Shown here: positions 673 through 47,818 of the stretch, in pieces
Layout: every line of letters begins with the position of its first letter
How positions within the stretch are numbered: position 1 is the stretch's first letter
IMG/VR virus record: IMGVR_UViG_3300037119_010699
Coordinates: 1 to 48,874 of that record
Length of the DNA stretch: 48,874 nt
Source of the DNA: a virus
Direction: 5' to 3' (one strand)
Program-made: the position numbers and the translations under genes
The notes under the pieces: model-generated
Databases searched by the model: none
Told to the model about the DNA's origin: nothing
What the model saw: the letters and a program-made list of their open reading frames with translations, nothing else

Positions 673-2862
673 TCATGAGAACTTGTCCAACGTCTGTTTG
701 GCCGTCGCCCAGCGGCCGAGCAGCCGGCTGTTCTGGCCTTTCATCCCGCCGATGGCGGCAACACCGACGGCGGACTGGTAGTCGCCCGAACGCAGCCCGG
801 AGCGCACGGCGTCGATGTCGGCTTCGGCACCCAAGATGTCCTGCACCCCGCCGACGAACTGGGACTGGTACTCGGACTCGTTCATGCCGCCGGGCTTTTT
901 GCCGTAGAGCTCGGAGTACTCGGGGCGGCCCTGCACCCAGTTCAAGATGCGGGCGCTGACATCGAAGCTCATCCCCGGGTCGGCCTTGTCGAGTTGACCT
1001 TGCAGCATTCCGGTGACCGAGTTGACGACGTCGTCGGGGATGTCGCCGAGCATGAAGTCGCCGAACTGCTTCTGCAACTGCTCCTTGACCGACACCGGGT
1101 CGAGGACACGGCGCTGCGGCCCGGCCCCCCCGCCGCCGCCGCCGCCACCGCCGGAACCGGGGCCGAAGTCGAAGTAGTTGAGGTACTTCAACACGTTGTC
1201 GCCGATCGAGCCGCCGATCTGCTCGAACGCCGTGTTGCCCCCGGGGGCGAGCCCGCCCCGGCGCAGGATGCTCAACGCCGCTGCATTGTCGGCGCCGGTC
1301 ATCTTCTCCGGGTCGCCACCGGAGGCGGCGATGCGCTGGGCGAGCGAAGGGTCGATCGCCGAGATGAAAGCGAGCGCCTGATCCCCGCCGTAGGTTTCGA
1401 GGCCACGGTTGTAGCTGCCCTGGGCCAGCATCACCCCGGGGGCTCTGCCCTGGCCCTGGATCGTCTCTCGGACCCCCAACATGGCGTCGATCTGCTTAAT
1501 CGCCGCCAGGTGAGCCGCCGCCTCGGAACCCCCCGAACCCATCGCCACACCGGTCGTCATCTGGGTTTGCAGACTCGCACGCAGCGCCCGGCGCTCCGCG
1601 ACGCTCATCGCCTGGTACTCGCCGGGATCCAACCCGGCCTGCTGCTCGAGGCGTTCGATCTCCTGGCCGGTCTGGTTGTAGGTGCCGAGCTCCGGACCAG
1701 CGCCGTAGTAGCTCATCAGAGCGGCAGTCCCCCAGATCGGCAGGGTGTCGCCGTTGGGGCCGGGTTCGATGGCGTCGACGCCGGCGTTGATGCCGGCCAG
1801 GCGGACGATGCGAGTGATGGCGTCATCACCGAATCCCATCTCCCGCAGACCTTGTATCTGCTGCTCGGTGTAGTTGACCCGTCGGGATCCGTTGGCGAAC
1901 GGGATGTCGATCGAACGGGAGATCACCGGCTCCTGGTCGGCGATGACCGAGGAGACAAAGTGCTCCATCGCCTCGGTCTGACCGGTCGCTTCCATCAACG
2001 GGGCGACCTGGGAGAAGTCGGTGAACGACGTGCCCTGCTGATCGTTCCAGTAGTCGACGAACCGGTCCTTCTCGATCTCGGTCAGCGGCCGGCCGAGCGA
2101 GCGGAGGATCCAGACCGGGGTGTCCGGGTCGCTGATGAGGCCGCCCATCCGGTCCTCGATGAGCCGGGCACGGTCCTCCTCGGACATCTCGGGGTTCTGG
2201 GTGGCGAGTTGGTCGTTGAGGTTCTCCCGGTACTGGGCTTCGCCCTGCTCCTGTGCCTGGGCGATCCACTGGTCCAGTGGCGCACCACTCAACCCGGGGG
2301 GGGCATAGGTGGCGATGTCGTCGAAGTTGGGGACACCGCCGTCGGGGGTGTTCTCGTACTGTCCGACGACATAGTCGACGGCCTCGTCAAGTACCTGCTG
2401 CTGCGCGAAATCAGTTTGGGAAGCAGCGGTGTCAGCGGCGGCGGTCGTCGTCGGAAGCGCCGCAGCCCAACCCGAATCCTCGGGTTGCCCGGCGACCCAG
2501 GCGTCGAGATCGTCAATGACGTGTTCGTTGAGATCCTCGGCGTGTGCGTCCAGCCAAGCCCTGCCGTCTTGCGGCCCCAGCTCTTGCAGATACTCGATGA
2601 TGTCGGCGGAACTGCCGAGTTCGGGAGGGGGCAGACCTTCGGCTTCAGTGCCGTAGCCGGCACCGAATGCCACTTGCGTTGCCGCCTGCACGTCACGGTC
2701 AGTTCGTCTCAGCCAATCGGCGACGGACGCCTGCTCGTTCGCCGGCAGGTTCCAATAGTGCGATCGGACCCAGGCGTTGACCTCGTCGTCGGACATGTCG
2801 TTGAGCAAGTCGTAGTAATGCTCGAGGTCCAGACCGTCAGGCGGGGTCGGGGTGTCGCTCAT
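673..2862 (-). CDS. Large virion-associated protein, 729 aa, function unknown
   Basis: The start is ATG 2862 (MSDTPTPP), overlapping the stop of the upstream 2078-aa gene by ATGA. The protein is acidic and largely helical, with an N-terminal section of short helices (DLEHYYDLLNDMSDDEVNAW) and a Gly-only tract near residue 575 that looks like a flexible linker. No catalytic motif was recognised. It lies between the giant protein and the transglycosylase-like protein in the late operon, the place where T7-like phages keep internal (ejection) proteins. The role as an internal virion or injection-channel protein is inference from size and context only. Confidence 0.65.
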   Translation of the reverse strand: MSDTPTPPDGLDLEHYYDLLNDMSDDEVNAWVRSHYWNLPANEQASVADWLRRTDRDVQAATQVAFGAGYGTEAEGLPPPELGSSADIIEYLQELGPQDGRAWLDAHAEDLNEHVIDDLDAWVAGQPEDSGWAAALPTTTAAADTAASQTDFAQQQVLDEAVDYVVGQYENTPDGGVPNFDDIATYAPPGLSGAPLDQWIAQAQEQGEAQYRENLNDQLATQNPEMSEEDRARLIEDRMGGLISDPDTPVWILRSLGRPLTEIEKDRFVDYWNDQQGTSFTDFSQVAPLMEATGQTEAMEHFVSSVIADQEPVISRSIDIPFANGSRRVNYTEQQIQGLREMGFGDDAITRIVRLAGINAGVDAIEPGPNGDTLPIWGTAALMSYYGAGPELGTYNQTGQEIERLEQQAGLDPGEYQAMSVAERRALRASLQTQMTTGVAMGSGGSEAAAHLAAIKQIDAMLGVRETIQGQGRAPGVMLAQGSYNRGLETYGGDQALAFISAIDPSLAQRIAASGGDPEKMTGADNAAALSILRRGGLAPGGNTAFEQIGGSIGDNVLKYLNYFDFGPGSGGGGGGGGGAGPQRRVLDPVSVKEQLQKQFGDFMLGDIPDDVVNSVTGMLQGQLDKADPGMSFDVSARILNWVQGRPEYSELYGKKPGGMNESEYQSQFVGGVQDILGAEADIDAVRSGLRSGDYQSAVGVAAIGGMKGQNSRLLGRWATAKQTLDKFS

Positions 2863-5800
2863 CGCAGTTGCATCGCACTTTCGATCAGGCCCCACTCACG
2901 CCGCCAGAACTTGTTCCAGAGGCTCGTGAAGCCGGGGTTGACACGGGCGTACTCGACGGCGCGGCGGTGGACCTCGTCGAACACCTCGGCCGGGGCGTCC
3001 TCGATCTGGCCGTTGCCGGTGGTCAGTCCGACCATCTCCATCGTGTCGTCGATGAACTGCTGCATCTCGGCGACCTGCTGGTTGTCGGGCGACACCGGGG
3101 AGCCGTCAGGGTTGCCGTAGGTGGCGTTGGCAATGCGGGCCGACTTCTCCATGTTGAGCGCCTCGATGTTGCCCGGCGCCTCCATCCGTGACTGCCACCA
3201 CGCCGGGTAGCGCTGTTGCAGCTCGAGCTTCTTGCGTTCGTACTGGGCGCGGAGCGGGGCCATGAAATCGATGAAGGCGTCGTTGAACACGTCGTTCATC
3301 GTGAAGCCCTCTTCTTGGAGCTTGGTCTCGAAGTCCCGTTTGAACGAGTACCAGTCGTCGTAGCCGTCGTCGATCTGCGCCCGATACGACTCGGCGGCCA
3401 TCGGCGTGGCCAGACCGGTGATGTTGGGGACGGCGACCTCGGCGAAGTCACGGGTCATCCAGTTGATGTCGTTCCACACCGGCAGCATCCCCCCGGCGAT
3501 GCCGCCGAGCCGACCGGACTTGCGCTGCTGCGGGGTGCCGATCAGCTCGTCGACGACCGAGACGTCCTTGATGTTGGTGGCGAACGGGATGAAGGCGTTC
3601 CACGCCACCTTGCCGACGCCTTCGAACAGTTGCGAGTTGATGCCGCCGAAGCGGCCGGCGGAGATGCCGTAGGCGAACAGGTTGAGCCGGGAGAGCTGGG
3701 TGAGCCAAGGGATGTGGTCACGCCACAGTTCGTCGAGGTTGTGCTCCTCGTCGAGGCGCTCGTAGGTCTTGAGGGCGTCGTGGAGGATGATCGAGCGGCC
3801 GAGGTCGTCGTTCAACCACTTGGCCATGTGGCCGAGCGCCTTCTTCTGGAAGGAGAACGGGAACATGATGAAGTTGGCCGACATCTCCGCCGCCGAGCGT
3901 CCCCGGGTGCCGTAGTTGTACATGCTCTTGGCCGCCTCGTACGCCTCGTCGATCCCCAACCCCTGGTTGCGCAGGTTGACGAACGCCGTGCCCATCCAGT
4001 CGGTCGGTGAGAACCCAAGAATGCCGACCTGGCGGAACGCCTTGGTGATCGGTTCGATCGACCCGGCGTCGACGTCGCCACCGCGACGGGCCGCCGCGGT
4101 GAACTCGCCGATACGGGACTCGTAGATGTCATGCGCCATCCGGTTGGCCGCCTCGGCCGTCTCACCCTTCGCCTCGAGCCCTTTAGCGATGCTGCGGCGC
4201 AGCGCCCGGGGCGACATGTTGCCGGGGATGACAATACGCTCGCCGGCCCGGTGGGCCACGCCGGCGGCATCGACGGTGTCCTCCAGGTAGCGGGTGGGTG
4301 CCGCGGTCTGGGCGAGGAACAGACCCTCGGTGTAGCGGGACAGGTCGAAGAACGGTGACAGGGTGAAGCGCATCGAGTCACGCAGCCGGGCGTAGGAGTC
4401 GCCGAGATAGGCGTGCTTCCAGCTCTCGGTGCGCTGGATGATGTCCTTCCCAATGAACGGCAACCCATGGATGTCCGCAGCGTTGACCCCGGCGGCCAGA
4501 CCGCCGGCGACACCGGCACCGACCGCAGCACCGGTGAGAGCCGACTTCAACCGGTCCTGGAAGCTCGAGTCCCGATCAGCGGCAAGAGCGCCTCCGACGG
4601 CGCCGATGCCGGCGCCGGTCAACGCCTGGCCGCCGACCCGGCCCCACACCCGTTCGCCGTAGCGGGTGCCGCCCAACGTCTTCAAGAAGCTGGCCGGCAC
4701 GTTCTGCTTGCGCAGATAGGCCTCGATGCCGTAGAGGCCCATGTCCTGGAACTCGGAGTTGCGGAACTGCTGGGTGGCCTTCCAGATCGCCATCGCCTCG
4801 TCGCCTTCGATGCCGGCGTCGGCCAGCGAGCGGAGCACACCTTTCTGCAACTTGGGTGACAGGTCGTCGATGCGGATCGGGGTGAACGCCGAGCCGAGCC
4901 GGTCGAAGGTGCGCTTGATGCGGGTCCGCTCGTGGGCGGTGGCCATCAGCTTGCCGACGTCGTCCTGTTCGGCCCGCAGCCACCGCTCGAGCACGCCCAG
5001 GATGTTGTCGACCTCGGCGTGGTCGGGGGTGACGTCTTTGCCGACCTTGGCCAGTTCGTTGACGATGGCGAGGCGGCGGCGGCGGTCGTCCAGGATGGCC
5101 CGTTCGATCGGGTGGCGCCGGGAGAAGAAGTTGCCCATCGTCACCGAGTTGAGGTGGCGGCGGGTGACGTCGTTCATGATCGGGGTGTGGAAGGCGATGT
5201 CCTCGGGCATCAAGAACTCGGCGCCGTGGACGAGCTTGTAACCCCGTTCGTCCATGCCGGTCTTGAGTTGACGGAGCCGCTCGGACGTGGAGAGAACCTC
5301 GGGGGCCGTGCCGTGGCCGATGTTGTCCATCGCTGCTTCGGCTGCCGCGGCAGCACCGGGAGGAACACCCCTGGGTTGCGCCGTGAAATCGGCGTCGGGT
5401 CGGACGACGGCCTCCCACTGCGACTCAGGTCCGAACAGCGAGTCCGACGGCCGACCGACACGAACCTGGTTGATGTTGGCGCCAGGTTCCAGGTCGCCCT
5501 TGCGCACCTTGACCTCGAGGACGACACCGTCAGACCCGGCGTACTTGCGTGCCTCCGACGGAGACCACGACACGGCGAGCCCGTCGGCCTTGGCGATGGG
5601 TGGCTCGACTCCGTGAAGGAACCTCTCCCGCGCTTCGATCGACTCCATCGACCCGGATGGACGTACTTCACGACGGCCGGCGGCGTAGCGGCCTTCGGCG
5701 GTGAGTTGGTCGGCGAGCTCACGGGTGGTGCCGTGGTAGAGGGTGACGATGTCGTCGTCGCCGAGCGCCTCGAACTTGACGGCAGCCGCTCGCATCCCCT

Positions 5801-8800
5801 CCTCGAACTCGGGGGAGATCACGTCCAGGTCGTCAAGGTGGCTGAAACTGTGCGCGGCCGTCGAAGTGGCAGCAGCCTTCTCGGCCGTCTCGAGCGCCGT
5901 ATGGTGGGCGATGAGGGCGTCGACGTCGACCTCAGCGGCGGTGTACGGGATGCGTTCCCGCAGATCCTTCAACCGGCGTTGCAGGGCGTCGACCCCGCCC
6001 ATCGGCCGGCCGGCCTCGTCGAACACGGCCGATTTCATCCCCCACTGCTCCCACTCCTTGGCCAGAGCGAGCTCGTCGGCCATGCGGCGCAGCTCGGCGT
6101 CGACCCGTCCCAGTTGGATGCCGTGGTGGTCGGCGAAGGCGAGCAGCTTGCGCATCGCCTTCTTGTTGACCCCCTTCTCGGCGGCGGCTTTGGCCATCAC
6201 GACGATCTGACGGTCGGTCAACGGGTTGTCGCCCACCTTGGCGGCCCGGATCGCCTCATCGATCTCGTTGAGGTCGACGAGGGCGGCGAAGTTCTTGGCC
6301 TGCATGTCCCGGACCAGTTCGGTCGTCTCGACGACGTCGGCGACCTGCTCGGCCATGTTCTCCAACATCTGCTTGGTCGGCGACTCGGCCCGCATCAGCG
6401 TCATCCGGCCCGGCTGGGAGGCGCCGGCCAGGGCGTCGAGGCCGAGGATGCGGGTGACGTCGACGTTCGGCTGGACGAGCATGTTGTTGAGCTCGGTGTT
6501 GACCCGGGCGACCTGCGGGTCGATCTTGCGGGTCTGGCGGAACGGGTTGACGAGCTTGCCGCGCCGCGTGGTGACCGGTTTGAGTTGGGCGGCGTCGAAC
6601 ACGTCGTCGAGGCGGAGCAGGCGGACGTCGTTGAGCGACGCCGTGTACTTGTCCCAACTGCCGATCGAGTCGAAGTAGTTGGGGACGTAGTCGGCGAACA
6701 GCTCGCCCCGTGATTTCATCGGCGTCGTCGCCCACTTGGAGCCGAGCACGTTGCGTGGCCCCTGGGCGGCGCCGGACATGTCGAGCTGCGGTTTGGGGAA
6801 GTTGCGCTGGTCGAACATCTGCAAGATGGTGTCGCCGGCCAGTTTGTTGTGGGTCTCGGCGATGTCGATCACCTTGGACTCGGGCCCGGCCCGCAGTTTC
6901 TCGGCGATCTCGTCGGCCCGGGCCCGGATCTCGACGAGGGTGGCGCCGGCGCCGCCCTTCTCGGCGTAGGCCATCCCGGCGGCCACCTCGTCGATCAAAT
7001 CTTCGATCGGGCGTTCAAGGTTGATCGGACGGAGCTGTTGGATGATCGTGTTGCGGGCGACGTGGTAGGCGTCCATCTGACCGACGATGCCGGTCACCGT
7101 GGCCGCCTGGGCGGCAGCGATGTGGTCGGCGGCGAACGAGGCGTAGCCGAAGGCGATGGACGCTGCGGCGGCGTTCTCGTCGATGCCGTGGTGCTTGGCG
7201 AGGGCGCCGATCACGCCGAGCGTCGACACGTTGTTGTCCCACTCAGCGAGCTTGTCGGGGTCGGTGAGGAGACGGCGGCGGAAGCCGGTGTTGAACCCGG
7301 CCATCACCTCCTGATCGGCGGCGATCAGTTGGAAGTTGGTGCGCACCATCTGGTGGCCGACGCCGCGCAGCAGTTTGTTGAGGCCGTTGACGCCGGCCTG
7401 TTGGTAGAAGCGGCGGCGCACCGAGTTGGGCATGACCAGCCCCATCCCGACGCCGGCCATCGCCCCGAGGGCGATGTCTTCGGGTGAGTCGCCGAGCAGC
7501 GCCCCGCCGGCAGCGCCGATGAGCGCCCCGGTGAGCCCCTGGTGGACCCGTTCCACTTCGGTGATCCGACCCAGGTAGGGCAGGGCGGCGCCGGCGGCGG
7601 CGCCGATCGCCGCACCCTTGGCGATGTCGCCGGCGTCGTCGCCGACCATCGTGCCGATCGCCACCCCGGCCGCGGCGCCGGCCACGGCCCGCCCGGGGAT
7701 CGTGCCCAGAGCGCCGTGGACGCCGCGCAGGGCGCCCGACACGGCGCCGACGCCGAGGGCGTCGTGGCGGAAGAAGGTGCCGGGCGAGAACACGTTGTAG
7801 GGGGCGAACATCAACTCCAACGGCATCCAGCCCGGGTGGTATTTGACGTGTTCCAGGAAGTCGCCCGCTGCGCCGACACCGGGAATCGACGACAACTGCA
7901 CGCCGGTGGCGTTCTCGTAGCCGGGCATCTTGGACTCGAGCACACCGGCGAAACCGAGGCGCATCCCCTGCTGCACGACCGACTTGGTGGCCACCACCGG
8001 CGTCGAAGCCCGCCAGGCGGCGAGGGCGTCACCGGCGGCGCCGCCGGCCCGGGTCAACATCCCCATCTCGGTGCCGGCCTCCCGGGCGACGACAGCGCCT
8101 TTGCGCAGACGGTTGGCGATCATCGAGGCGTTGCCGAGCTCCTCGAGGTTGCGGCCGGCGACGCCGACGAGGGACTCGGCGAAACGGCCGATCCGCCCGC
8201 CCTCCCACAACCGGGAGAAGATCCCGGCCGACTGGGCGAGACGGGCACCCTCCCAGCCGACCCGGGCGAAGTTGGCGATCTCGCCGACCCCGACGAACAT
8301 CAGCCCGACGTTGATGATCGGGAAGACGATGTCGTCGATCGGCCCCGTCGCCGCGTCGATCAGCTTGCCGGCCCAGTCCAACGGGTTCTTGGCGTGGCTC
8401 AACGCCCGCCACTTGTCGCCCCACGACGAGATCTCGTTGCCGATCTGACCGAAGTCCCAGAAGAAGTCGAGCTCGGTGGCCATCGACAGCAGCCCCGACG
8501 GCGACGTGAAGTCGCCCAGCAGGCGCATCGCCGTCGACAGCGACGTGGCCAGCGGCCGGTTGCCACGCAGCTGGCTGTTGTAGTCGTCGAACGCCATCTC
8601 GCCGCGCATCCGGTTGAACTCGGGTGACCACGAGTTGTCGACCCGGCGGGGATCCATGTCCAACATGCCACGTTGGATGGCCCGCAGCTTGAACGCCTTG
8701 ACCGAGTTCTCCGACAGTTGCGTCGGCGGCGGGTTCGACGTCATCGACGCCAAGATGATACGGGACTGGTCGAGACCCGACTGCTGGGGGACGAGACCCT

Positions 8801-9095
8801 GCTGGGCTGGCAGCGGGACCTGCTGGGGTGGCGGCTCGGGGGTGGTGTTGCGGCCGAACACGTCGTCGAGACCGAAGAGAAACTCGGTGAGCGAATCCTC
8901 ATCCGCGCCGGGCATCCCGATCAGATCCGTCTTGACCATGTCGGGGATCTGGGGCAACTGCCACGACTGCTCGACCTGGGACACCCGACGGAAGTTGCGG
9001 TCCATCCGCTCCAAGTCGGGGGCGAGGGCCACCGCGGCCGGGGCGACCAGCTGCGAAGCCGGGGCGACGAGCTGGGAGGCGCCGTAGTCGCTCAT
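2859..9095 (-). CDS. Giant virion protein (2078 aa) with internal ADP-ribosyltransferase-like domain
   Basis: The start is ATG 9095 with an ATGA overlap to the upstream gene. It is the longest gene, about 13% of the genome. Glycine-zipper hydrophobic segments (AAAGVAIG, KGAAIGAAAGAALPYLG) lie at about 470-555, with a second set near 1490-1540; both could insert into membrane. A domain at about 1110-1235 has the layout of an ADP-ribosyltransferase: LYHGTT with His1121, a strand ending SWSPSEARKYAG with Tyr1185, and ESQWEAVV with Glu1228, matching an H-Y-E type triad. The C-terminal 500 residues are helical. Family knowledge: T4 Alt and MuF-linked ARTs are delivered from virions. An ejected protein that spans the envelope and modifies host targets is inference. 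Confidence 0.75.
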   Translation of the reverse strand: MSDYGASQLVAPASQLVAPAAVALAPDLERMDRNFRRVSQVEQSWQLPQIPDMVKTDLIGMPGADEDSLTEFLFGLDDVFGRNTTPEPPPQQVPLPAQQGLVPQQSGLDQSRIILASMTSNPPPTQLSENSVKAFKLRAIQRGMLDMDPRRVDNSWSPEFNRMRGEMAFDDYNSQLRGNRPLATSLSTAMRLLGDFTSPSGLLSMATELDFFWDFGQIGNEISSWGDKWRALSHAKNPLDWAGKLIDAATGPIDDIVFPIINVGLMFVGVGEIANFARVGWEGARLAQSAGIFSRLWEGGRIGRFAESLVGVAGRNLEELGNASMIANRLRKGAVVAREAGTEMGMLTRAGGAAGDALAAWRASTPVVATKSVVQQGMRLGFAGVLESKMPGYENATGVQLSSIPGVGAAGDFLEHVKYHPGWMPLELMFAPYNVFSPGTFFRHDALGVGAVSGALRGVHGALGTIPGRAVAGAAAGVAIGTMVGDDAGDIAKGAAIGAAAGAALPYLGRITEVERVHQGLTGALIGAAGGALLGDSPEDIALGAMAGVGMGLVMPNSVRRRFYQQAGVNGLNKLLRGVGHQMVRTNFQLIAADQEVMAGFNTGFRRRLLTDPDKLAEWDNNVSTLGVIGALAKHHGIDENAAAASIAFGYASFAADHIAAAQAATVTGIVGQMDAYHVARNTIIQQLRPINLERPIEDLIDEVAAGMAYAEKGGAGATLVEIRARADEIAEKLRAGPESKVIDIAETHNKLAGDTILQMFDQRNFPKPQLDMSGAAQGPRNVLGSKWATTPMKSRGELFADYVPNYFDSIGSWDKYTASLNDVRLLRLDDVFDAAQLKPVTTRRGKLVNPFRQTRKIDPQVARVNTELNNMLVQPNVDVTRILGLDALAGASQPGRMTLMRAESPTKQMLENMAEQVADVVETTELVRDMQAKNFAALVDLNEIDEAIRAAKVGDNPLTDRQIVVMAKAAAEKGVNKKAMRKLLAFADHHGIQLGRVDAELRRMADELALAKEWEQWGMKSAVFDEAGRPMGGVDALQRRLKDLRERIPYTAAEVDVDALIAHHTALETAEKAAATSTAAHSFSHLDDLDVISPEFEEGMRAAAVKFEALGDDDIVTLYHGTTRELADQLTAEGRYAAGRREVRPSGSMESIEARERFLHGVEPPIAKADGLAVSWSPSEARKYAGSDGVVLEVKVRKGDLEPGANINQVRVGRPSDSLFGPESQWEAVVRPDADFTAQPRGVPPGAAAAAEAAMDNIGHGTAPEVLSTSERLRQLKTGMDERGYKLVHGAEFLMPEDIAFHTPIMNDVTRRHLNSVTMGNFFSRRHPIERAILDDRRRRLAIVNELAKVGKDVTPDHAEVDNILGVLERWLRAEQDDVGKLMATAHERTRIKRTFDRLGSAFTPIRIDDLSPKLQKGVLRSLADAGIEGDEAMAIWKATQQFRNSEFQDMGLYGIEAYLRKQNVPASFLKTLGGTRYGERVWGRVGGQALTGAGIGAVGGALAADRDSSFQDRLKSALTGAAVGAGVAGGLAAGVNAADIHGLPFIGKDIIQRTESWKHAYLGDSYARLRDSMRFTLSPFFDLSRYTEGLFLAQTAAPTRYLEDTVDAAGVAHRAGERIVIPGNMSPRALRRSIAKGLEAKGETAEAANRMAHDIYESRIGEFTAAARRGGDVDAGSIEPITKAFRQVGILGFSPTDWMGTAFVNLRNQGLGIDEAYEAAKSMYNYGTRGRSAAEMSANFIMFPFSFQKKALGHMAKWLNDDLGRSIILHDALKTYERLDEEHNLDELWRDHIPWLTQLSRLNLFAYGISAGRFGGINSQLFEGVGKVAWNAFIPFATNIKDVSVVDELIGTPQQRKSGRLGGIAGGMLPVWNDINWMTRDFAEVAVPNITGLATPMAAESYRAQIDDGYDDWYSFKRDFETKLQEEGFTMNDVFNDAFIDFMAPLRAQYERKKLELQQRYPAWWQSRMEAPGNIEALNMEKSARIANATYGNPDGSPVSPDNQQVAEMQQFIDDTMEMVGLTTGNGQIEDAPAEVFDEVHRRAVEYARVNPGFTSLWNKFWRREWGLIESAMQLR

Positions 9096-11059
9096 CGGGC
9101 CTTCACCAACTGGATCGGGCCGTCGTCGCCGACGAGCTCGACGGCGTCGTAGCCGTACTTGCCGGCCAGGGCGTGGGCCTGGCGGATCTTGGAGCCGATG
9201 TCATCCTCCCCACGGGCGTCGATCCGCCAGCGGCCGCCGACCTTCCGGGCCGTCATCTCCTCGGGGATCGTGTCGATGGCGTCGCCGGGGATCTGCAACC
9301 ACTTGCGGGGCAGCTCGTCGGCCCGGCGCACCCACACCGGCAGGCCGTTGGGGTCGCCGATCACCGGGTCGGCGGTTCGGGCAACCGTGTAGCCCGAACC
9401 GCCGTCCCCGTAGACGTGTTCGCGCACCCGCTCGAACCCGTCGACCTGGGGCGTGGACAGATACGCCCTCAGGTTGGCCGCCCCGACCGTCTCGAAGTGG
9501 TCGGCCAACCCCTGCACGTAGGGGCGGGCCCGTTCGTCGATCGGCATGTGCCAGCGGTCCACCGGCTTGGAACGTCGTTCGACGATCAGCGGCGACTCCT
9601 CCAAGTTGGACCCGAGGCGCACGATGTCGCCGTCGGCGGTGGTGAACGTCCAGTCCGTCTCATCGCCCTCCATCTCGGCGTCGACGATGTCGTCGTAGTC
9701 GTCGTTTCTCGTGGCGATGCCGTCGTTGACGAAGGCGTAGGCCGACACCTCGGCCGCCTCGGCCGGAGTGATGCCGAACACCAGGACCCCGGTGCGGCTG
9801 CCCGAGGTGACCGGGATCCGGTCGTAACGGGCGTTGAGTTTGGCGTCGCCGGGGAAGACGGCCCACATCGTCTCGTCGAGGAACTTGTTGGCCGCCGACA
9901 CGTCGATCAGGTCGGTTCCGGTCACCGGGCGCGGCGACAGCTTCGGCCCCTGGGCGATGCCCCGGCCGAGGCGGGTCGCCCCCAACTGCTGGATCCGCTG
10001 GTTGGGCTGGTCCATGTCGAACACCAGCGAGTCGTACGGCAGCAGACCGGGGTAGACGCCGAGATGGACGTCGACCTGCGCCGTCGGGTTGCGGGTGGCG
10101 GCGGCCTGCACCGAGGCGGGGTCCCTGACGATGACCGGGCGCACCGACATCCACCGGGCGCCCCGCTCACCCTCGACGGCGGGGAAGCCACGCCGGTAGA
10201 AGTCGTCGATCCTGTCGACCTTGCCGATGACGACGGCGTCGGTCTCACCGACATACAGGTCCAAGTCGTCACCCCTCGGCCCGGCCCCCTTCAACGCCGA
10301 CTGGGGCATCCAGTCGCCGGGCAGGGCGGCCAGGGCGCCGGGGGCCGACACCGGCTCACCGTCGTCGCCGGGGGCGTAGCGGACGTGGAGACGGACGTCG
10401 GGGTCGACGTCGACGCCGACCAGTTTGCCGTTGCGGCCGATCGAGAAGTCGTCGTCGAAGCTGTCCAACGCCCTCGCCACCTTGGTCACCGTCGAGTCGA
10501 GCTCACCGGATTGCAAATCACCCAGACGGCCGGCTTTCAGGTCGCCGTAGAGCTTGCCGACCCGCTCCGAACCAGCCTTGACGAGCCCCTCGGACGCCAA
10601 CCGGTCGAACCGGGCGACGTCGACGGGGGCGGCGAGACGGTTGTTCGACTCGTAACGGTCGATCCACGCCCCGACGGCCGACGCCACGCCGTCATCGGCG
10701 CCGCCGGCGAGGATCCGACCCTGTTCCATCTTGTCGTCAGCGGTGTCGAGCAACTTCTGCTGTTTGGTCGAGATCCCGGCCCGCTGCAACGGCATCGGCG
10801 ACTGTTCCATCCGCTTTTCCGAGCGCCACACCTCGTAGGCGTCGAGATCGGCACCGGGCTTGCCGGCGTGCACCGCAGCGCCGGTCAACAGGCGGTCCCG
10901 GGGCCCGATCTGGGGGTCGACGACCGGTGAGGCGAACTCGGCGGTCGCCTTACGTCTCGTCTCGCCCATCGCAGCGAGCAAATCCTGCTCCGACGGCGCC
11001 GGCGCCGGGTAGAGCTCGTTGCCCTGCGGCCCCGGCGTGGCGACGTCGACGCTGGTCAC
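9092..11059 (-). CDS. Virion-associated protein, 655 aa, function unknown
   Basis: GTG at 11059 is chosen because it overlaps the upstream stop as GTGA. The frame stays open upstream, but that stretch lies inside the previous gene. The N-terminal 150 residues are polar and helical. The middle is beta-rich (VDVHLGVYPGLLPYDSLVFDMDQ), and the end has an ADELPRKWLQIPGDAIDTIPEE segment followed by a basic/acidic tail ending LVKAR. No motif was recognised. It is translationally coupled to both neighbours and sits just before the giant ART-bearing protein, so it is probably a packaged or head-to-tail protein. Confidence 0.6.
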   Translation of the reverse strand: MTSVDVATPGPQGNELYPAPAPSEQDLLAAMGETRRKATAEFASPVVDPQIGPRDRLLTGAAVHAGKPGADLDAYEVWRSEKRMEQSPMPLQRAGISTKQQKLLDTADDKMEQGRILAGGADDGVASAVGAWIDRYESNNRLAAPVDVARFDRLASEGLVKAGSERVGKLYGDLKAGRLGDLQSGELDSTVTKVARALDSFDDDFSIGRNGKLVGVDVDPDVRLHVRYAPGDDGEPVSAPGALAALPGDWMPQSALKGAGPRGDDLDLYVGETDAVVIGKVDRIDDFYRRGFPAVEGERGARWMSVRPVIVRDPASVQAAATRNPTAQVDVHLGVYPGLLPYDSLVFDMDQPNQRIQQLGATRLGRGIAQGPKLSPRPVTGTDLIDVSAANKFLDETMWAVFPGDAKLNARYDRIPVTSGSRTGVLVFGITPAEAAEVSAYAFVNDGIATRNDDYDDIVDAEMEGDETDWTFTTADGDIVRLGSNLEESPLIVERRSKPVDRWHMPIDERARPYVQGLADHFETVGAANLRAYLSTPQVDGFERVREHVYGDGGSGYTVARTADPVIGDPNGLPVWVRRADELPRKWLQIPGDAIDTIPEEMTARKVGGRWRIDARGEDDIGSKIRQAHALAGKYGYDAVELVGDDGPIQLVKAR

Positions 11060-11460
11060 CTGACCATGCCTTCGAGCATCGTGGTCGCCCACTCCCGGGT
11101 CATCTGCGACACACCCGGGTTCTTGGCCAACGCCTCCAACGTTTGGATCGTCTGCTCCAGCGTCGACGCCGCCATCGGCGCCGGCATCGACAGCGGCGTC
11201 CCCACCGGCTCGTCGGGTCGCCGGGTCGGCGAGGTGAGCATCGACGACGGCAGACCGCCACCGGGGGCCGGTTCGGGCATCGGACCGGGCATCGGCGCCG
11301 TCGGGGTGGCCATCCCCGGGCCCGTGCCCGCCGGCGTCGTCGCCGGCAGTTCACGCTTCAACTGCTCGGCCTGCGCCTTCTCCCCGTACGTCCCCGAATC
11401 AGGGGCGCCGACCCGCCCCGAAGCAGGCGCCATCGTGGCGATGTCGGGCACGTCGGCCAC
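11056..11460 (-). CDS. Pro/Met-rich small protein after portal, 134 aa
   Basis: The GTG start at 11460 lies 3 bp after the portal stop, and the stop overlaps the next gene by GTGA. The central 60 residues are Pro/Gly/Met-rich and probably disordered; the last 35 (TLEQTIQTLEALAKNPG) form a helix. It resembles the low-complexity tail of the portal just upstream, so it may be a portal-associated or scaffold-like accessory protein. No homologous family was recognised. Confidence 0.6.
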   Translation of the reverse strand: MADVPDIATMAPASGRVGAPDSGTYGEKAQAEQLKRELPATTPAGTGPGMATPTAPMPGPMPEPAPGGGLPSSMLTSPTRRPDEPVGTPLSMPAPMAASTLEQTIQTLEALAKNPGVSQMTREWATTMLEGMVR

Positions 11461-11463
11461 CGC

Positions 11464-13383
11464 TCAGCCGCCCATCTGCGAACCGGCGAACGACCCGCCG
11501 CCCATCGGCACCGACAACCGGTTGATCGGCGACGGACCACCCTCGGCGCCACCGCCGGCACCGGCACCGCCCAAAATGCCGGCCATCACCTGCCGGGGAT
11601 CAGGCGCCGTCGGCGGCGCGGGACCACCGACACCGCCTTCAGCGCCTCCCGGAGGGGGACCGGGCATCAACTGCGAGCCGTCCAGCCCCGAGGTCAACAT
11701 CTGCTCTTTCTGCGCCTGCTGCGGCTTCAACACGTACTTCTCGAACACGTCGACCAACAGGTCGCCCTTGGCGACGTCACGCATCATGTCGACATGGGCC
11801 TGACCGTCGATCTGGCCCTGTTCGATCATCATCATCAACTTGGCCATCAACTGCATCCCCAACTGCTCGTTGAGAATGCGGGAACGTGTCCTGGCGACGT
11901 CGGTGATCCCCGGATAGTTCTCCTGGGCGTCCTCGAGGCTGATCATCCCGCCGCCGTGCAACTGCAAAGCGAGCACCGCCGACTGGGTGACGTCCCGACC
12001 GAACCCCAACCCGTACTCGACGGTCACCTTGGCCGCCAGGTCGATGTCTTTGCGCCGGAACTCCAACTGGAACTGCTGGTTGCGCATCGTGCCGGCCACG
12101 GTGCGCTCGGGACCCTCGACGGCGTCCAAAGCGAACGCCACCCGCTGCGCCTGGGCGGCCATCCGCTCGAACAGGGTGTGATGGGTGGCGATCACGGCGT
12201 TCTGCACGCCCAGAGTGCTCTCCACGAACTTCGAGGACGCCTGGGACTGCTGCACGTCGCCGGGCCGGTTCTTCGGCCAGCGGGCCCCGACGTGCACGGC
12301 GTCCAACAACCTCTGCGTCTCCTCGAAGAAGCTGAACCCGACACTGGCCGGCGGCAGGCGGAACGCCTTGCCGTTGGGGCCGAGCTCGATCACGGCGTCA
12401 GGGCCCATCGGAATGTCGCCGATCGGATCGACGACAACGAGCTCGTTGTACACCGCCTGATGGGCGTGCTCCATCGCCGCGGCGACGAGGCGGATGTGGG
12501 CGTGGAGCACCGGGATCACCTGGTCGTACTGGCCCCTCGGGTAGCCGTCGAGGCTGGGGATCTGCCCGTAGATGCCGCGGCACATCTTCGCTGCGTTCGG
12601 GTAGTCGTCGACGATCACCGACACCCACTTGGCCTGCCCGTACATCGCCCTCGAGATGTCACCGCCGGTAGGGATCGTCGCCGCGTCGTACGACACGCCG
12701 ACGGTCACCCGCTCGCAGTCCGAGTACTCGATGAGCGTGATCCCGTGGTTGTCGAAATGCTCCCACTCCCACTCCTGCTCCATGCAGTGGGCGAAGAACA
12801 CGTCGCGGTAGTGCTCGGGGAGCTGGCTCAGGTACATCTCCCGGGCGAAGAACACCCGGTCGGCCACCCCGAGCGTGCCGATGTCAGGCTCGGGGTAGCA
12901 CGACATCGGGTCACGCCACTCCAGACGGCTGCCCGAACGCCCGTAGGGGCCGTCGTTGACCACGTTCCAGCAGGCGAACCCGTAGGCCCCGGCGCCGATC
13001 GACGAGCTCTGGAAGAACAGCTTGCCGCCGGCCTTGTCCAAGTAGCTGGCGCCGAGCTGCTCCATCTTCGCCGCACACTTCTTGGAGCGCTCACTGCTCG
13101 GATCAGACGGCGCCACCCTCACCGTCGGGATCATCGCCGCGGCCGCCGCGGTGTCCTCCAAACCGACCTGGATGATGTTCGGGCTCTTCGACCACAACTG
13201 CCGGTCGTCGGCGTCGACCACCGACCAGTCGCCCCTGACCACCCGGGCGATCAGGTCCATCCGCTCGTCACGCTCGATCTGACGCTCCACGAACCGCTGC
13301 CACAACCGGGTGAACTGTTGGGGATCCCACGCCTCCAGGCCGGAGTACTCGTCGAACACACCTGACCCGTAGATGCTTCTCAC
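11464..13383 (-). CDS. Portal protein
   Basis: GTG 13383 is chosen because it overlaps the upstream stop by GTGA, giving 639 aa. The order terminase-portal, the size, and the succession of an alpha/beta wing (VIVDDYPNAAKMCRGI) and long helices (FEETQRLLDAVHVGAR; LAALQL-type stem) are typical of dodecameric portals that form the DNA entry channel. Residues 130-160 (SSSIGAGAYGFACWNVVND) also have a portal look. The C-terminal 70 residues are Gly/Pro/Met-rich and low complexity, as in many T7- and actinophage portals. The call rests on position and general sequence character, not on a catalytic motif. Confidence 0.75.
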   Translation of the reverse strand: MRSIYGSGVFDEYSGLEAWDPQQFTRLWQRFVERQIERDERMDLIARVVRGDWSVVDADDRQLWSKSPNIIQVGLEDTAAAAAMIPTVRVAPSDPSSERSKKCAAKMEQLGASYLDKAGGKLFFQSSSIGAGAYGFACWNVVNDGPYGRSGSRLEWRDPMSCYPEPDIGTLGVADRVFFAREMYLSQLPEHYRDVFFAHCMEQEWEWEHFDNHGITLIEYSDCERVTVGVSYDAATIPTGGDISRAMYGQAKWVSVIVDDYPNAAKMCRGIYGQIPSLDGYPRGQYDQVIPVLHAHIRLVAAAMEHAHQAVYNELVVVDPIGDIPMGPDAVIELGPNGKAFRLPPASVGFSFFEETQRLLDAVHVGARWPKNRPGDVQQSQASSKFVESTLGVQNAVIATHHTLFERMAAQAQRVAFALDAVEGPERTVAGTMRNQQFQLEFRRKDIDLAAKVTVEYGLGFGRDVTQSAVLALQLHGGGMISLEDAQENYPGITDVARTRSRILNEQLGMQLMAKLMMMIEQGQIDGQAHVDMMRDVAKGDLLVDVFEKYVLKPQQAQKEQMLTSGLDGSQLMPGPPPGGAEGGVGGPAPPTAPDPRQVMAGILGGAGAGGGAEGGPSPINRLSVPMGGGSFAGSQMGG

Positions 13384-13607
13384 TTGCCCACCTCCTTGAC
13401 CGCCTCCTGCCCGACCAGCCACCAGTAGCCGCCGAGGAACTCACGGATCGGCTGGCTCACCGTCCCCGTCGCCGTCGGCACCTGGACATAGGCCGGCACC
13501 ACCCCGTACACCACCCGGTCGTGCCCGGTCACCACGGCGATCACCACCTCACCGACACCACAAGCGGCGACAGCCTCAGCCCTCGACCCGCACTCAAGGG
13601 CCCGCAC
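13380..13607 (-). CDS. Small protein between terminase and portal, 75 aa
   Basis: The most likely start is GTG 13607, which overlaps the end of terminase by 14 bp. The stop is shared with the portal start (GTGA). The sequence has strands (EVVIAVVTGHDRVVYGVVPAYVQVP) followed by an amphipathic helix (IREFLGGYWWLVGQEAVKEVG). There is no recognised family. The tight coupling on both sides supports a real gene in the packaging module. A head-closure or packaging cofactor is possible but unproven. Confidence 0.6.
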   Translation of the reverse strand: MRALECGSRAEAVAACGVGEVVIAVVTGHDRVVYGVVPAYVQVPTATGTVSQPIREFLGGYWWLVGQEAVKEVGK

Positions 13608-15633
13608 CGAACATCCCCTCCAACTCGACCTGCGACACATCCATGTTGGCCAGACGGCGCGGCACCGGCGTCGTGTGCGTGAACCCGAAATCGGCCGCCG
13701 TCGGCGAGCGCTCCCCACCCTTGGAATGCACCCGACGCCTGCGGGCCAGATGGGCCGGGATCGGCTCGGCGTGCTGGCGGACCCCGAACTTTCTCGCCAA
13801 CCCCCGCTCGAACTGCAACCGGCAGCCCGTCTCGGCGATCCAATACGCCATCATCAGATCGGTCGGCGCCCCCTCCATCGGGAAACGCATCAACTGCTCC
13901 TCCAGCTCCCCCACCCGGCGCCTCGTCTCACGGTCCCCCCACGGCAGCGAGACCATGCCGTTGTGGAACGACGTCGACATCGTCTCGATCCCCCAGAACG
14001 GATCCCACTTGCCGGCGATCCCCGACTTGGCGTTCGTGTTGTGCCGGTCCATCCGGGCCCCGCACGCCGTGATGTGGTTGCGGTACTCCGCCGTCTCGAA
14101 GATCTGGGACTGCAAGGCGACCGTCTCATACCGCACACTGGCCACCCGGTAGCGGGCCGTCCAGTCGAAGATCTGGGCCTGCATCTGAGGCTGGGACATG
14201 GAGCGGACGTTGACCAGGTCGATCAGATAGCGCATCCCCGACGCCCGGTCGATCCCCAACAACACCATCGCCGTGAAGCCGGCCTGCTTGCCGTGACCGG
14301 CCGGGTCCACACCCAACACGACCGCCAGGTTCAACCCCCGCGGCAACTGCCCCAGGATCCTCGACTCATCGTGCGCCCGGTCCACATGGTCCTTGGTGAA
14401 AGACGCCCCCTCGGCCATCACATCAGAGTTCTGATACATCAGCTCGAACAGCTCGGCCGTGGTCCGTCCCTTGCGGCGCATCGCCTCGGCGAAGTCGATG
14501 TGGTCGGGCCACAACGTCGTCTCATCCTCATAGCTCAAAATGCACGGATGTCTGAGCACCGTGTAGTCACTGAGCTCCAACAGCCTCGAGTAGACGTCGG
14601 CCGGCGCCACCCTCGTCCCCACGACGTGCAGCCGGCCGTTGCCCCCGACACGGGAGTCCAGAGTGCTCGTCACCTTCTTGAACATCTTGGACACCTTGTC
14701 CGGCGTGTCGTTGTTGTCGACGTCGGCGATGTCGTCGCAGATGATCCGGTGGATGCGGCGCCCGTAGATCTTCGAAGCGATCCCGAACGCCCGCATCGTC
14801 GGCTCCTTCTCGGCACTTCTTCTGGACGCCACCTCGAACTGCTTCTGCGTCCACGACCCCTCGCCACGGAACGGACCGGCATCGGCGATCAGATTGCGGG
14901 CACTGCCCTCGTACACCTCGGGGTTCTCCAAGAACATCTGGATCTGGCCGACGATGTCCTTGGCCAGATCCTCCCCAGCCGAGATCACCGCCATCTGGAT
15001 GTTCGGGTTGCGGGCGATGTCGAACAGGCTGGTGAACACCGTGCCGTTCGTCGTCTTGGAATGCTCCGGAGGGACGTTGACCAACAACCTCTTCTCCGCC
15101 GGATCGGTCATCCTCGACATGATCTCGTCGTGGAACGCCGGGATCTCATGACGCACCGGCTCCCCCTCCAACGTGAGACAGTTCCAGCACTTGAGACCGC
15201 CGAAATACGTGCGCACGAACGTGCCGATGTCTTTGGGCAGCCGACGGTGCTCGTTCAACCCCAGCACCGGGGCCAGACCGGCATTCGCCCTGACGATGTC
15301 CTTGTTGACCTCCCGGGCCCGCTCTTCGGCCACCGCCAGCTCGGCACGGACCCCCTTGAGCTTCACGCAGATCGTCGACGGATGAATCCCGTAGTAGCGG
15401 GCCGCCTCGGCCTGACCCCACCCGTCGTCGAGCACCTTGGCGATCGCCGCCTGCACCCGCCGCGTCGGCGACCAGCCTTTCGTGTTGTTCGCCTGATACC
15501 GCTTCGACAGCGTCGAACGAGGCCTCGCACCCGGGGCAAGGCCGACCTTCCCCGCCCTGGTGAGCTCACGAGCCACGAACCAGGACTGTACAGCCTGTGT
15601 GGTCTGAGACCGGAGATACCCGTACTCAACCAC
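13594..15633 (-). CDS. terL: Terminase large subunit with N-terminal HTH
   Basis: This is a packaging ATPase/nuclease of up to 679 aa. The N-terminal 95 residues include a helix-turn-helix (GWGQAEAARYYGIHPSTICVK), resembling a small-terminase DNA-binding domain. An ATPase core follows: LVNVPPEHSKTT, a Walker A variant found in T7/T4-type terminases, then HRIICDDIADVDN as Walker B. The C-terminal RNase H-fold nuclease starts with LGVDPAGHGKQAGF. No separate small terminase was recognised next to it. The start is uncertain: GTG 15633 has only a poor ribosome site, and a GTG about 60 bp further in is also possible. First gene of the late operon. Confidence 0.88.
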   Translation of the reverse strand: MVEYGYLRSQTTQAVQSWFVARELTRAGKVGLAPGARPRSTLSKRYQANNTKGWSPTRRVQAAIAKVLDDGWGQAEAARYYGIHPSTICVKLKGVRAELAVAEERAREVNKDIVRANAGLAPVLGLNEHRRLPKDIGTFVRTYFGGLKCWNCLTLEGEPVRHEIPAFHDEIMSRMTDPAEKRLLVNVPPEHSKTTNGTVFTSLFDIARNPNIQMAVISAGEDLAKDIVGQIQMFLENPEVYEGSARNLIADAGPFRGEGSWTQKQFEVASRRSAEKEPTMRAFGIASKIYGRRIHRIICDDIADVDNNDTPDKVSKMFKKVTSTLDSRVGGNGRLHVVGTRVAPADVYSRLLELSDYTVLRHPCILSYEDETTLWPDHIDFAEAMRRKGRTTAELFELMYQNSDVMAEGASFTKDHVDRAHDESRILGQLPRGLNLAVVLGVDPAGHGKQAGFTAMVLLGIDRASGMRYLIDLVNVRSMSQPQMQAQIFDWTARYRVASVRYETVALQSQIFETAEYRNHITACGARMDRHNTNAKSGIAGKWDPFWGIETMSTSFHNGMVSLPWGDRETRRRVGELEEQLMRFPMEGAPTDLMMAYWIAETGCRLQFERGLARKFGVRQHAEPIPAHLARRRRVHSKGGERSPTAADFGFTHTTPVPRRLANMDVSQVELEGMFGAGP

Positions 15634-46577: not shown

Positions 46578-46724
46578 CTATCGCTTTTTCTTGAGGACGC
46601 CGTTGGCCTGGCGGATGGCCGAGCCGGGACTGGCCCCCCGCCTCTTGGCCGACTGGTAGACATGTTCCCACTGGCGTTTCTTCTTAGGCGTGGTCGCCTT
46701 GCGGGTGAACCGTTGGGCGGGCAT
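46578..46724 (-). CDS. Small basic protein, 48 aa
   Basis: The ATG at 46724 is joined to the 364-aa gene's stop (TGATG). Lys/Arg-rich with KATTPKKKRQWEHVYQSAKR and a SPGSAIRQANGVLKKKR end, resembling short basic ChaB-like or head proteins. Binds DNA perhaps. Supported by its tight fit between two genes. Confidence 0.6.
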   Translation of the reverse strand: MPAQRFTRKATTPKKKRQWEHVYQSAKRRGASPGSAIRQANGVLKKKR

Positions 46725-47818
46725 CAGTAGCTCGTGAACCCGGACTGGACGATGCGCTTGCCCTGCTCGCCGAAGCGGAACGTGCCCACGTCACGGCCGG
46801 CCGCCTCGATGTAGTTCTGCCCGGCGGCCAGATCGCCGGCGGCGGCGGCGTTGCCGAGGAACTGGGCCGACTCGAATTGGGTCTGGCCGAAGGTGGTGCC
46901 CCGGGCCCGTTGCACCGCAGCGGACAGCACGCCCTGGTTCTGGCCGAAGGCGGCGTAGCCGGCGATCATCTTCGCCTTGTCGACCCCGGCGGCACGGATC
47001 TCGGAGAGACGTTCCTTGGTCGGCAGCTCGAGGCCGGCCTCGGAAGCGGCGGCACCGACGGCCATGAACTCGAAGGCGTCGAGCAGTTCGTTGAGGCTGA
47101 GCGGCGTCGACGAGCCCGGTGTCGGGTCGCCGCCGTGGTAGATGGCGTCCATGATCTGACGGGCGAAGGTCGGGTCGACCTCGAGCACCTGCTGCACCGC
47201 GGCACCCTTGGTCTGGCCCTGCGTCTGGGCGTCCGACAGCACCTTGGCGACACGGGACAGACCGGCCTGGGTGGCCCGGGTGATCCAGTTCTTCCAAGCG
47301 TTGGGGCCCGACGCCTCGGCGGCGACCTTGGCGTTGTAGGCGTTGTAGAGCGCCTGCTCCTTGGCCGGGTCGACGGCAGCCTCGAACAGTGCGTCGTCGT
47401 CGGGCGTCATCCCGGCGTAGGTGTAGAAGGCTTCACGGACACGGGGCCCGGCCTGCTTGACCTGCTGCCACACCTGGAGCTCGTCACGCACCTCGTCGGG
47501 TGACTTCTCGGCTTCGAACAGTCCGACGAGCGACGCCGGGGTGGCGTACTCCTTGTCGACATCGATGCCGGCCTGGCGGAACAGGGTGCGGTACGCCTGC
47601 TCGGTCTGGAGGTACTCGGCCGGGGTCATCCGCTGTGAGCCGTCCTGGCGGTACAGACCGGTGAAACGGGAACGCCACGCCGGTTCGTTCTGGATCTTGG
47701 TCATCAGTTCGGACGCACCCGACGACGTGGCGACGAGTTGTTGGATGCGGGCCGGGGTGATCCCCACCGTCTTCAACCAGGGGAAGTCGGCGACCAGATC
47801 GGCGTACAGGTCGGCCAT
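46724..47818 (-). CDS. Virion-associated helical protein, 364 aa
   Basis: ATG 47818, one base after the transglycosylase stop. Mostly helical, with YLQTEQAYRTLFRQAGIDVD and ending FRFGEQGKRIVQSGFTSY. A C-terminal stretch of alanine-rich helices (AAVQRARGTTFGQTQFESAQFLGNAAAA) could line a channel. Similar in style to internal virion proteins; no family assigned. Confidence 0.6.
   Translation of the reverse strand: MADLYADLVADFPWLKTVGITPARIQQLVATSSGASELMTKIQNEPAWRSRFTGLYRQDGSQRMTPAEYLQTEQAYRTLFRQAGIDVDKEYATPASLVGLFEAEKSPDEVRDELQVWQQVKQAGPRVREAFYTYAGMTPDDDALFEAAVDPAKEQALYNAYNAKVAAEASGPNAWKNWITRATQAGLSRVAKVLSDAQTQGQTKGAAVQQVLEVDPTFARQIMDAIYHGGDPTPGSSTPLSLNELLDAFEFMAVGAAASEAGLELPTKERLSEIRAAGVDKAKMIAGYAAFGQNQGVLSAAVQRARGTTFGQTQFESAQFLGNAAAAGDLAAGQNYIEAAGRDVGTFRFGEQGKRIVQSGFTSY

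What the first reader, a model, noticed from the sequence alone, without database searches (positions are those of the whole stretch)
5380..5770. ADP-ribosyltransferase-like domain embedded in a 2078-aa virion protein
Residues about 1110-1235 read LYHGTT (His1121), WSPSEARKYAG (Tyr1185) and SQWEAVV (Glu1228), in the order and spacing of an H-Y-E type ADP-ribosyltransferase. The rest of the protein has glycine-zipper membrane segments on both sides. Known virion ARTs (T4 Alt, MuF-linked) are separate or terminal; a domain in the middle of a giant ejection-type protein would be a new design for delivering an enzyme with the DNA.
Basis: partly seen in the sequence, partly recalled or inferred. 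Interest (0 to 1): 0.78.

Follow-up and report, generated by a model that had tools for sequence, protein, structure and literature searches.

The report
ADP-ribosyltransferase inserted in giant phage protein
A phage from a metagenome carries an enzyme-like domain (of the family that sticks ADP-ribose onto other molecules) spliced as a self-contained 200-residue block into a giant, probably virion-packaged protein whose relatives lack it; the general idea is known from other phages, but this carrier protein and this insertion are new.

Summary
In detail: the 2078-aa protein (2859-9095, minus strand) reads LYHGTT (H1121), SPSEARKYAG (Y1185) and QWEAVV (E1228). Direct Pfam, PHROGs and PDB sequence searches miss the domain, but relatives found by scans tie it to the ADP-ribosyltransferase (ART) superfamily. 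A profile built without it scores it 46 bits; several relatives hit ART-PolyVal, KptA or PARP themselves; 13 of 14 PDB profile hits are ARTs; and a seven-sequence AlphaFold model (pLDDT 62) retrieves almost only ART structures. The block is a clean 200-aa insertion (1068-1267): 32 homologous giants have 3-21 residues there, and its GC3 (0.785) is the lowest in the gene. A relative, L108, carries a related ART-like domain at a different site that is empty in all others, so this scaffold acquired ART-like domains at least twice. Delivery with the DNA is inferred from the gene's place beside portal and terminase. The proposed 'new design' is not new in kind: virion-packaged polyvalent proteins with embedded ARTs were published in 2017. 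New here are the unrecognised ART subfamily, the giant family that carries it, and the independent insertions. Catalysis, target and ejection are untested.

The parts
2859..9095 (-). giant 2078-aa protein; its N-terminal (about 27-447) and C-terminal (about 1276-2078) parts are conserved in a family of giants encoded near the portal gene
5295..5894 (-). 200-aa insertion, residues 1068-1267, absent from 32 homologous giants
   Evidence: GC3 dip
5376..5786 (-). ART-like domain core, residues about 1104-1240
   Evidence: profile hit 1107-1208, AlphaFold model m56238035819d, Foldseek
5733..5735 (-). H1121, candidate strand-1 histidine (LYHGTT)
   Evidence: sequence; aligned over the LYHGT of Tpt1/KptA
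5541..5543 (-). Y1185, candidate tyrosine (SPSEARKYAG)
   Evidence: sequence; end of modelled helix 80-87; Y in L162 and L167, F nearby in L166 and L108
5412..5414 (-). E1228, candidate catalytic glutamate (QWEAVV)
   Evidence: sequence; one residue before a modelled strand; aligned with E in several members, ambiguous
7347..7700 (-). glycine-zipper-like segment, residues 466-583, shared only with the nearest relatives L104, L105, L106, L143
4491..4643 (-). second glycine-rich hydrophobic segment, residues about 1485-1535
   Evidence: sequence
9092..11092 (-). 666-aa neighbour between portal and giant; in relatives this position is variable and can hold large polyvalent-type genes
11464..13422 (-). 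portal protein (homologous to Streptomyces Beephvirinae portals, 24-26%)
13594..15633 (-). terminase large subunit
   Evidence: phrog_38, 3.9e-58
673..2895 (-). 740-aa protein downstream of the giant, conserved in synteny

Best explanation
Residues 1068-1267 are a horizontally acquired domain of the ADP-ribosyltransferase fold, of the H-Y-[E/D] kind, inserted between two conserved parts of a giant protein encoded next to portal and terminase. Shown here: the clean insertion, the sequence relationship to domains of the ART superfamily, and an ART-like predicted fold of moderate confidence. Inferred: the giant is a head or internal virion protein that enters the host with the DNA, so the insert rides along as cargo and, once inside, uses NAD+ to ADP-ribosylate a host macromolecule (most likely a protein, as T4 Alt does) early in infection.
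For: Insertion: 32 of 32 homologous giants have 3-21 residues over columns where this one has 218; the closest relative (L104, 37-42% identity) aligns up to 1067 and again from 1268. Composition: GC3 of the insert is 0.785 against a gene mean of 0.906 (SD 0.041), the minimum of the gene. ART relationship: a profile without the window sequence finds it at 45.7 bits, E 1.7e-12. The window-type domain of L167 hits ART-PolyVal (0.0018), KptA (0.0022) and DRAT (0.078); L165 and L170 hit PARP (3.4e-4, 0.0054); L166 carries the domain in tandem with three ART-PolyVal domains (2.3e-58). PDB profile search: 13 of 14 hits are Tpt1/KptA or exotoxin ARTs. Foldseek: nearly all of the top 50 PDB hits are ARTs (Tpt1, TreTu, PARPs; probability up to 0.98), and the viral hits include annotated phage ARTs. 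Context: homologs sit at the C-terminus of a lambda-type portal (L162) and right after terminase or after a portal gene (L163, L167). L108 has an independent ART-like insertion at another site of the same giant family.
Against: No curated family recognises the window domain directly. Without relatives the model was uninformative (pLDDT 39.7); the seven-sequence model is of moderate confidence (62) and leans on an alignment of ART relatives. Most relatives were retrieved by patterns containing YH[GS]TT, so conservation of H is partly ascertained. The third catalytic residue is uncertain in several members. There is no direct evidence for virion packaging, ejection or catalysis.
Confidence: 0.6

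Rival explanations
1. The insert keeps the ART fold but is inactive, or has a structural or binding role.
For: Y appears replaced by F in L166 and L108, and the acidic residue aligns ambiguously, so the family tolerates change at catalytic positions.
Against: H, Y and an E in the expected order are all present in the window copy; ART-like domains were acquired at least twice at different sites of the scaffold, as expected of a selectable activity.
Confidence: 0.15
2. It is an ART-superfamily enzyme acting on RNA, DNA or free nucleotides (Tpt1/KptA-like, DarT-like or an NADase, for example against NAD-based defence or for RNA repair) rather than modifying host proteins.
For: The closest matches among solved structures are Tpt1/KptA RNA 2'-phosphotransferases.
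Against: KptA-specific catalytic residues were not looked for or found; the tandem partners in L166 and L167 are ART-PolyVal domains, which the literature predicts to modify proteins (PMC5512222).
Confidence: 0.15
3. The giant is not a virion protein; the ART acts inside the cell after synthesis there.
For: No homolog of the giant is annotated as a virion protein; it is an unknown in PHROGs.
Against: Conserved synteny portal - variable gene - giant - 740-aa gene across relatives; size and glycine-zipper segments suit an internal virion protein; a homologous domain is fused to a portal.
Confidence: 0.07
4. The resemblance to ARTs is chance, or the insert is an assembly chimera.
For: Single-sequence searches fail; a near-identical contig (L005) ends at window 6001, about 100 nt before the insert.
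Against: Shuffle and masked-motif controls, consistent ART hits by profile and fold, an open reading frame throughout and intact homologous flanks.
Confidence: 0.03

Closest known systems
ART domains of phage polyvalent proteins (ART-PolyVal PF18760; Tox-ART-HYD2 clade; Iyer et al. 2017, PMC5512222)
   Same: ART domain inside a large multidomain phage protein encoded among packaging genes and predicted to be packaged and injected; L166 and L167 combine ART-PolyVal copies with the window-type domain in one protein.
   Different: The window domain does not match PF18760, carries E rather than D at the candidate acidic position, and is a single insert in a conserved giant scaffold rather than one unit of a mosaic.
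N4-like virion RNA polymerase with fused ART (Roseovarius Plymouth podovirus 1, described in PMC5512222)
   Same: ART inside a giant protein that is expected to enter the host with the DNA.
   Different: No relation of this giant to N4 RNA polymerase was found in the searches run (no such Pfam or PHROGs hit).
MuF- or portal-fused phage ARTs (PMC9503650)
   Same: ART tied to a head protein; homolog L162 is itself at the C-terminus of a lambda-family portal.
   Different: Here it is in the middle of a giant with no recognised MuF or portal domain.
T4 Alt
   Same: Working model: head-packaged ART injected with the DNA.
   Different: Separate R-S-E ART of another clade (PMC5512222).
Tpt1/KptA RNA 2'-phosphotransferases and PARPs
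   Same: Best solved-structure matches by profile and fold.
   Different: Sequence identity to the model is only 10-20%; mostly cellular enzymes in their own right.

Membership tests
ADP-ribosyltransferase superfamily | ART fold (split beta-sheet core) | tested here: inconclusive
   Model of moderate confidence (pLDDT 62, pTM 0.53); Foldseek top hits nearly all ARTs, but the best E-values are 0.057 in PDB and 0.005 in the viral library.
ADP-ribosyltransferase superfamily | sequence relationship to known ARTs | tested here: met
   Through intermediates. Direct search of the window domain alone finds none.
ADP-ribosyltransferase superfamily | H-Y-[E/D] residues in one NAD-binding cleft | tested here: inconclusive
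ADP-ribosyltransferase superfamily | NAD+-dependent transfer | not testable with these tools
   Needs biochemistry.
ART-PolyVal (PF18760) | match to the family profile | tested here: not met
   No match of the window genome at E<=10; none.
Polyvalent proteins (phage type) | large protein encoded with virion genes that combines several effector domains | tested here: inconclusive
   Large and beside portal and terminase; only one effector-like domain recognised, the rest is an uncharacterised scaffold.
Polyvalent proteins (phage type) | packaged in the virion and injected | not testable with these tools
   Inferred from gene context only.

The most novel reading that the evidence does not exclude
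A widespread family of giant portal-linked virion proteins serves as a delivery scaffold with permissive internal sites: different lineages have slotted ART-like enzymes into different sites (window 1068-1267, L108 631-751, possibly L081 about 707-1218), so that enzymes are carried into the host as internal inserts of one conserved ejected protein.
Probability: 0.42. Interest if true: 0.65.

Novelty: new variant of a known kind. Interest (0 to 1): 0.46.

Why it matters
It shows effector acquisition with matched before and after states: the same scaffold with and without the enzyme, at two sites, in a giant protein family that annotation libraries do not recognise. That gives natural empty and filled versions for asking how a phage moves a folded enzyme into its host as part of a large virion protein, and it points to an ART subfamily that Pfam misses.

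Tried and rejected
Single-sequence Pfam, PHROGs, PDB and phage or plasmid tblastn searches of the domain found nothing. Single-sequence AlphaFold (pLDDT 39.7) and Foldseek on it were uninformative. Homology of this giant to the syntenic ~1640-aa giants of Beephvirinae: no support by BLAST or direct profile comparison, only a weak C-terminal hit when many distant giants are pooled. My guess that the 666-aa neighbour holds an inorganic pyrophosphatase (InPase) domain was not supported (PF18823). The L136 upstream BLAST hit to the domain is off-frame low-complexity noise. The tblastn hits are noise. A first genome-contig scan with the two-sequence alignment confirmed nothing.

Full report
What is there. 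The window is a viral contig (IMG/VR record, 48,874 bases). On the minus strand it encodes a terminase large subunit (13594-15633, phrog_38 3.9e-58), a portal (11464-13422; 24-26% identical to portals of Streptomyces Beephvirinae), a 666-aa protein (9092-11092), the giant 2078-aa protein (2859-9095) and a 740-aa protein (673-2895). The finding's motifs are at the stated residues of the giant.

Direct searches are blank. Residues 1085-1260 match no ART family in Pfam or PHROGs and nothing in the PDB. The best PHROGs hit, phrog_6170 (unknown function, E 0.16), is also hit by the relative L170 over its ART-like segment (E 1.8e-4). A single-sequence AlphaFold model is uninformative.

The scaffold and the insertion. 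A portal alignment retrieved 80 viral loci; most of those long enough carry a giant ORF (about 1500-2460 aa) downstream of the portal. A C-terminal alignment of the closest giants then retrieved 58 loci. Both conserved ends of the window giant align to these, and the nearest relatives (L104, L105, L106, L143) align on both sides but skip about residues 1068-1267. In an alignment of 33 giants, all 32 relatives have 3-21 residues over columns 1058-1275, where the window protein has 218. A systematic scan for private insertions of 60 aa or more found a glycine-rich segment shared with the four nearest relatives, a 66-aa segment in L140, an N-terminal extension in L142, and two inserts that look like ARTs: this one (1068-1267) and residues 631-751 of L108. 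The L108 insert lies at a different site, over window residues 713-719, where all others have 0-14 residues. Third-position GC of the window insert is 0.785, the lowest of any 600-nt window of the gene (mean 0.906, SD 0.041), which fits a later acquisition.

Is it an ART? The L108 domain (VYHSTTPELAERML...GFYVGDDPDRLRFLFG...IIVRKGDL) was found by plain BLAST and phmmer among the new giants, not by pattern. Patterns from that pair then found L162, L163/L164, L165, L166, L167 and L170. A profile without the window sequence scores the window domain 45.7 bits (E 1.7e-12 among all ORFs of the fetched loci); a profile also without L108 still finds both (6e-11 and 2.7e-5). Because retrieval used the YH[GS]TT motif, I masked that stretch: the remainder still scores 12.5 bits against a maximum of 8.3 in 2000 shuffles. 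The relatives link to named ART families: L166 has three ART-PolyVal domains (2.3e-58) beside the window-type domain; the window-type domain of L167 itself hits ART-PolyVal (0.0018), KptA (0.0022) and DRAT (0.078); L165 and L170 hit PARP (3.4e-4 and 0.0054). The seven-sequence profile (A6) against the PDB gives 14 hits, 13 of them ARTs (Tpt1/KptA and exotoxin ARTs), best E 0.029. AlphaFold with A6 rises to pLDDT 62, pTM 0.53, with the order strand (H1121), helix, strand, helix (Y1185 at its end), strands, and E1228 just before the last strand. Foldseek then returns Tpt1, TreTu, PARPs and, in the viral library, annotated phage ARTs, PARPs and DarT. These E-values are modest; taken together I rate the ART-fold assignment at about 0.9 and the full functional story lower.

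How it probably works. In homologs the domain is tied to packaging and head genes: at the C-terminus of a lambda-type portal (L162, PF05136 7.4e-54) next to terminase, directly after terminase (L163), after a portal (L167), and in a glycine-zipper protein of a phage near a tail-fibre gene (L170). Relatives of the window phage carry further polyvalent-type genes between portal and giant: DUF7178 and ParB_N in L014, HExxH metallopeptidase-like motifs in L018 and L021 (sequence). By analogy with T4 Alt and the polyvalent proteins, I infer that the giant enters the cell with the DNA and that the ART modifies a host macromolecule early in infection. Packaging, injection, activity and target are all untested.

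Comparison with the literature. Iyer et al. 2017 (PMC5512222) describe ARTs as by far the commonest protein-modifying enzymatic domains in polyvalent proteins, including one fused to the N4-like virion RNA polymerase and a protein with 12 copies. The 2022 survey (PMC9503650) adds MuF fusions and places about 44% of phage ARTs in contexts that suggest head packaging. The novelty lies in the unrecognised ART subfamily and the clean, repeated insertion into an uncharacterised giant scaffold.

Limits. The third catalytic residue is aligned with confidence only in some members. Model coordinates could not be inspected, so the shared-cleft test stays open. Metagenome collections, which would hold more relatives, were not available for scanning.

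Noticed in passing
L081 11563-17676 (and L082), residues about 707-1218: A distant giant has a roughly 475-aa insertion relative to L046, containing LFHGTSRVINDL...STSQDIAERYA and a later STVLVDPEMV; it looks like a third ART-like insert but has no Pfam support.
   Followed up: partly
L014 8617-15552: 2312-aa gene between portal and giant with DUF7178, ParB_N and a VWRGGETLGQGRLMSTSKDQSTAEFFG stretch that resembles an R-S-E type ART.
   Followed up: partly
window 5894-6001; end of L005: An identical contig from a sister metagenome ends about 100 nt before the insert; chance, or population variation at the insertion site.
   Followed up: partly
L163 7497-9089, L166 5026-7692, L167 3201-5651: Tandem ART-like domains of two types in single phage or bacterial proteins.
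   Followed up: partly
PHROGs phrog_6170: Family of unknown function (118 positions) that may be an ART family: hit by L170 over its ART-like segment and weakly by the window domain.
   Followed up: no
window 46724-47818 and L104 14543-15628: Both match phrog_8424; in L104 this gene lies downstream of the giant, so the window contig is probably circularly permuted.
   Followed up: no
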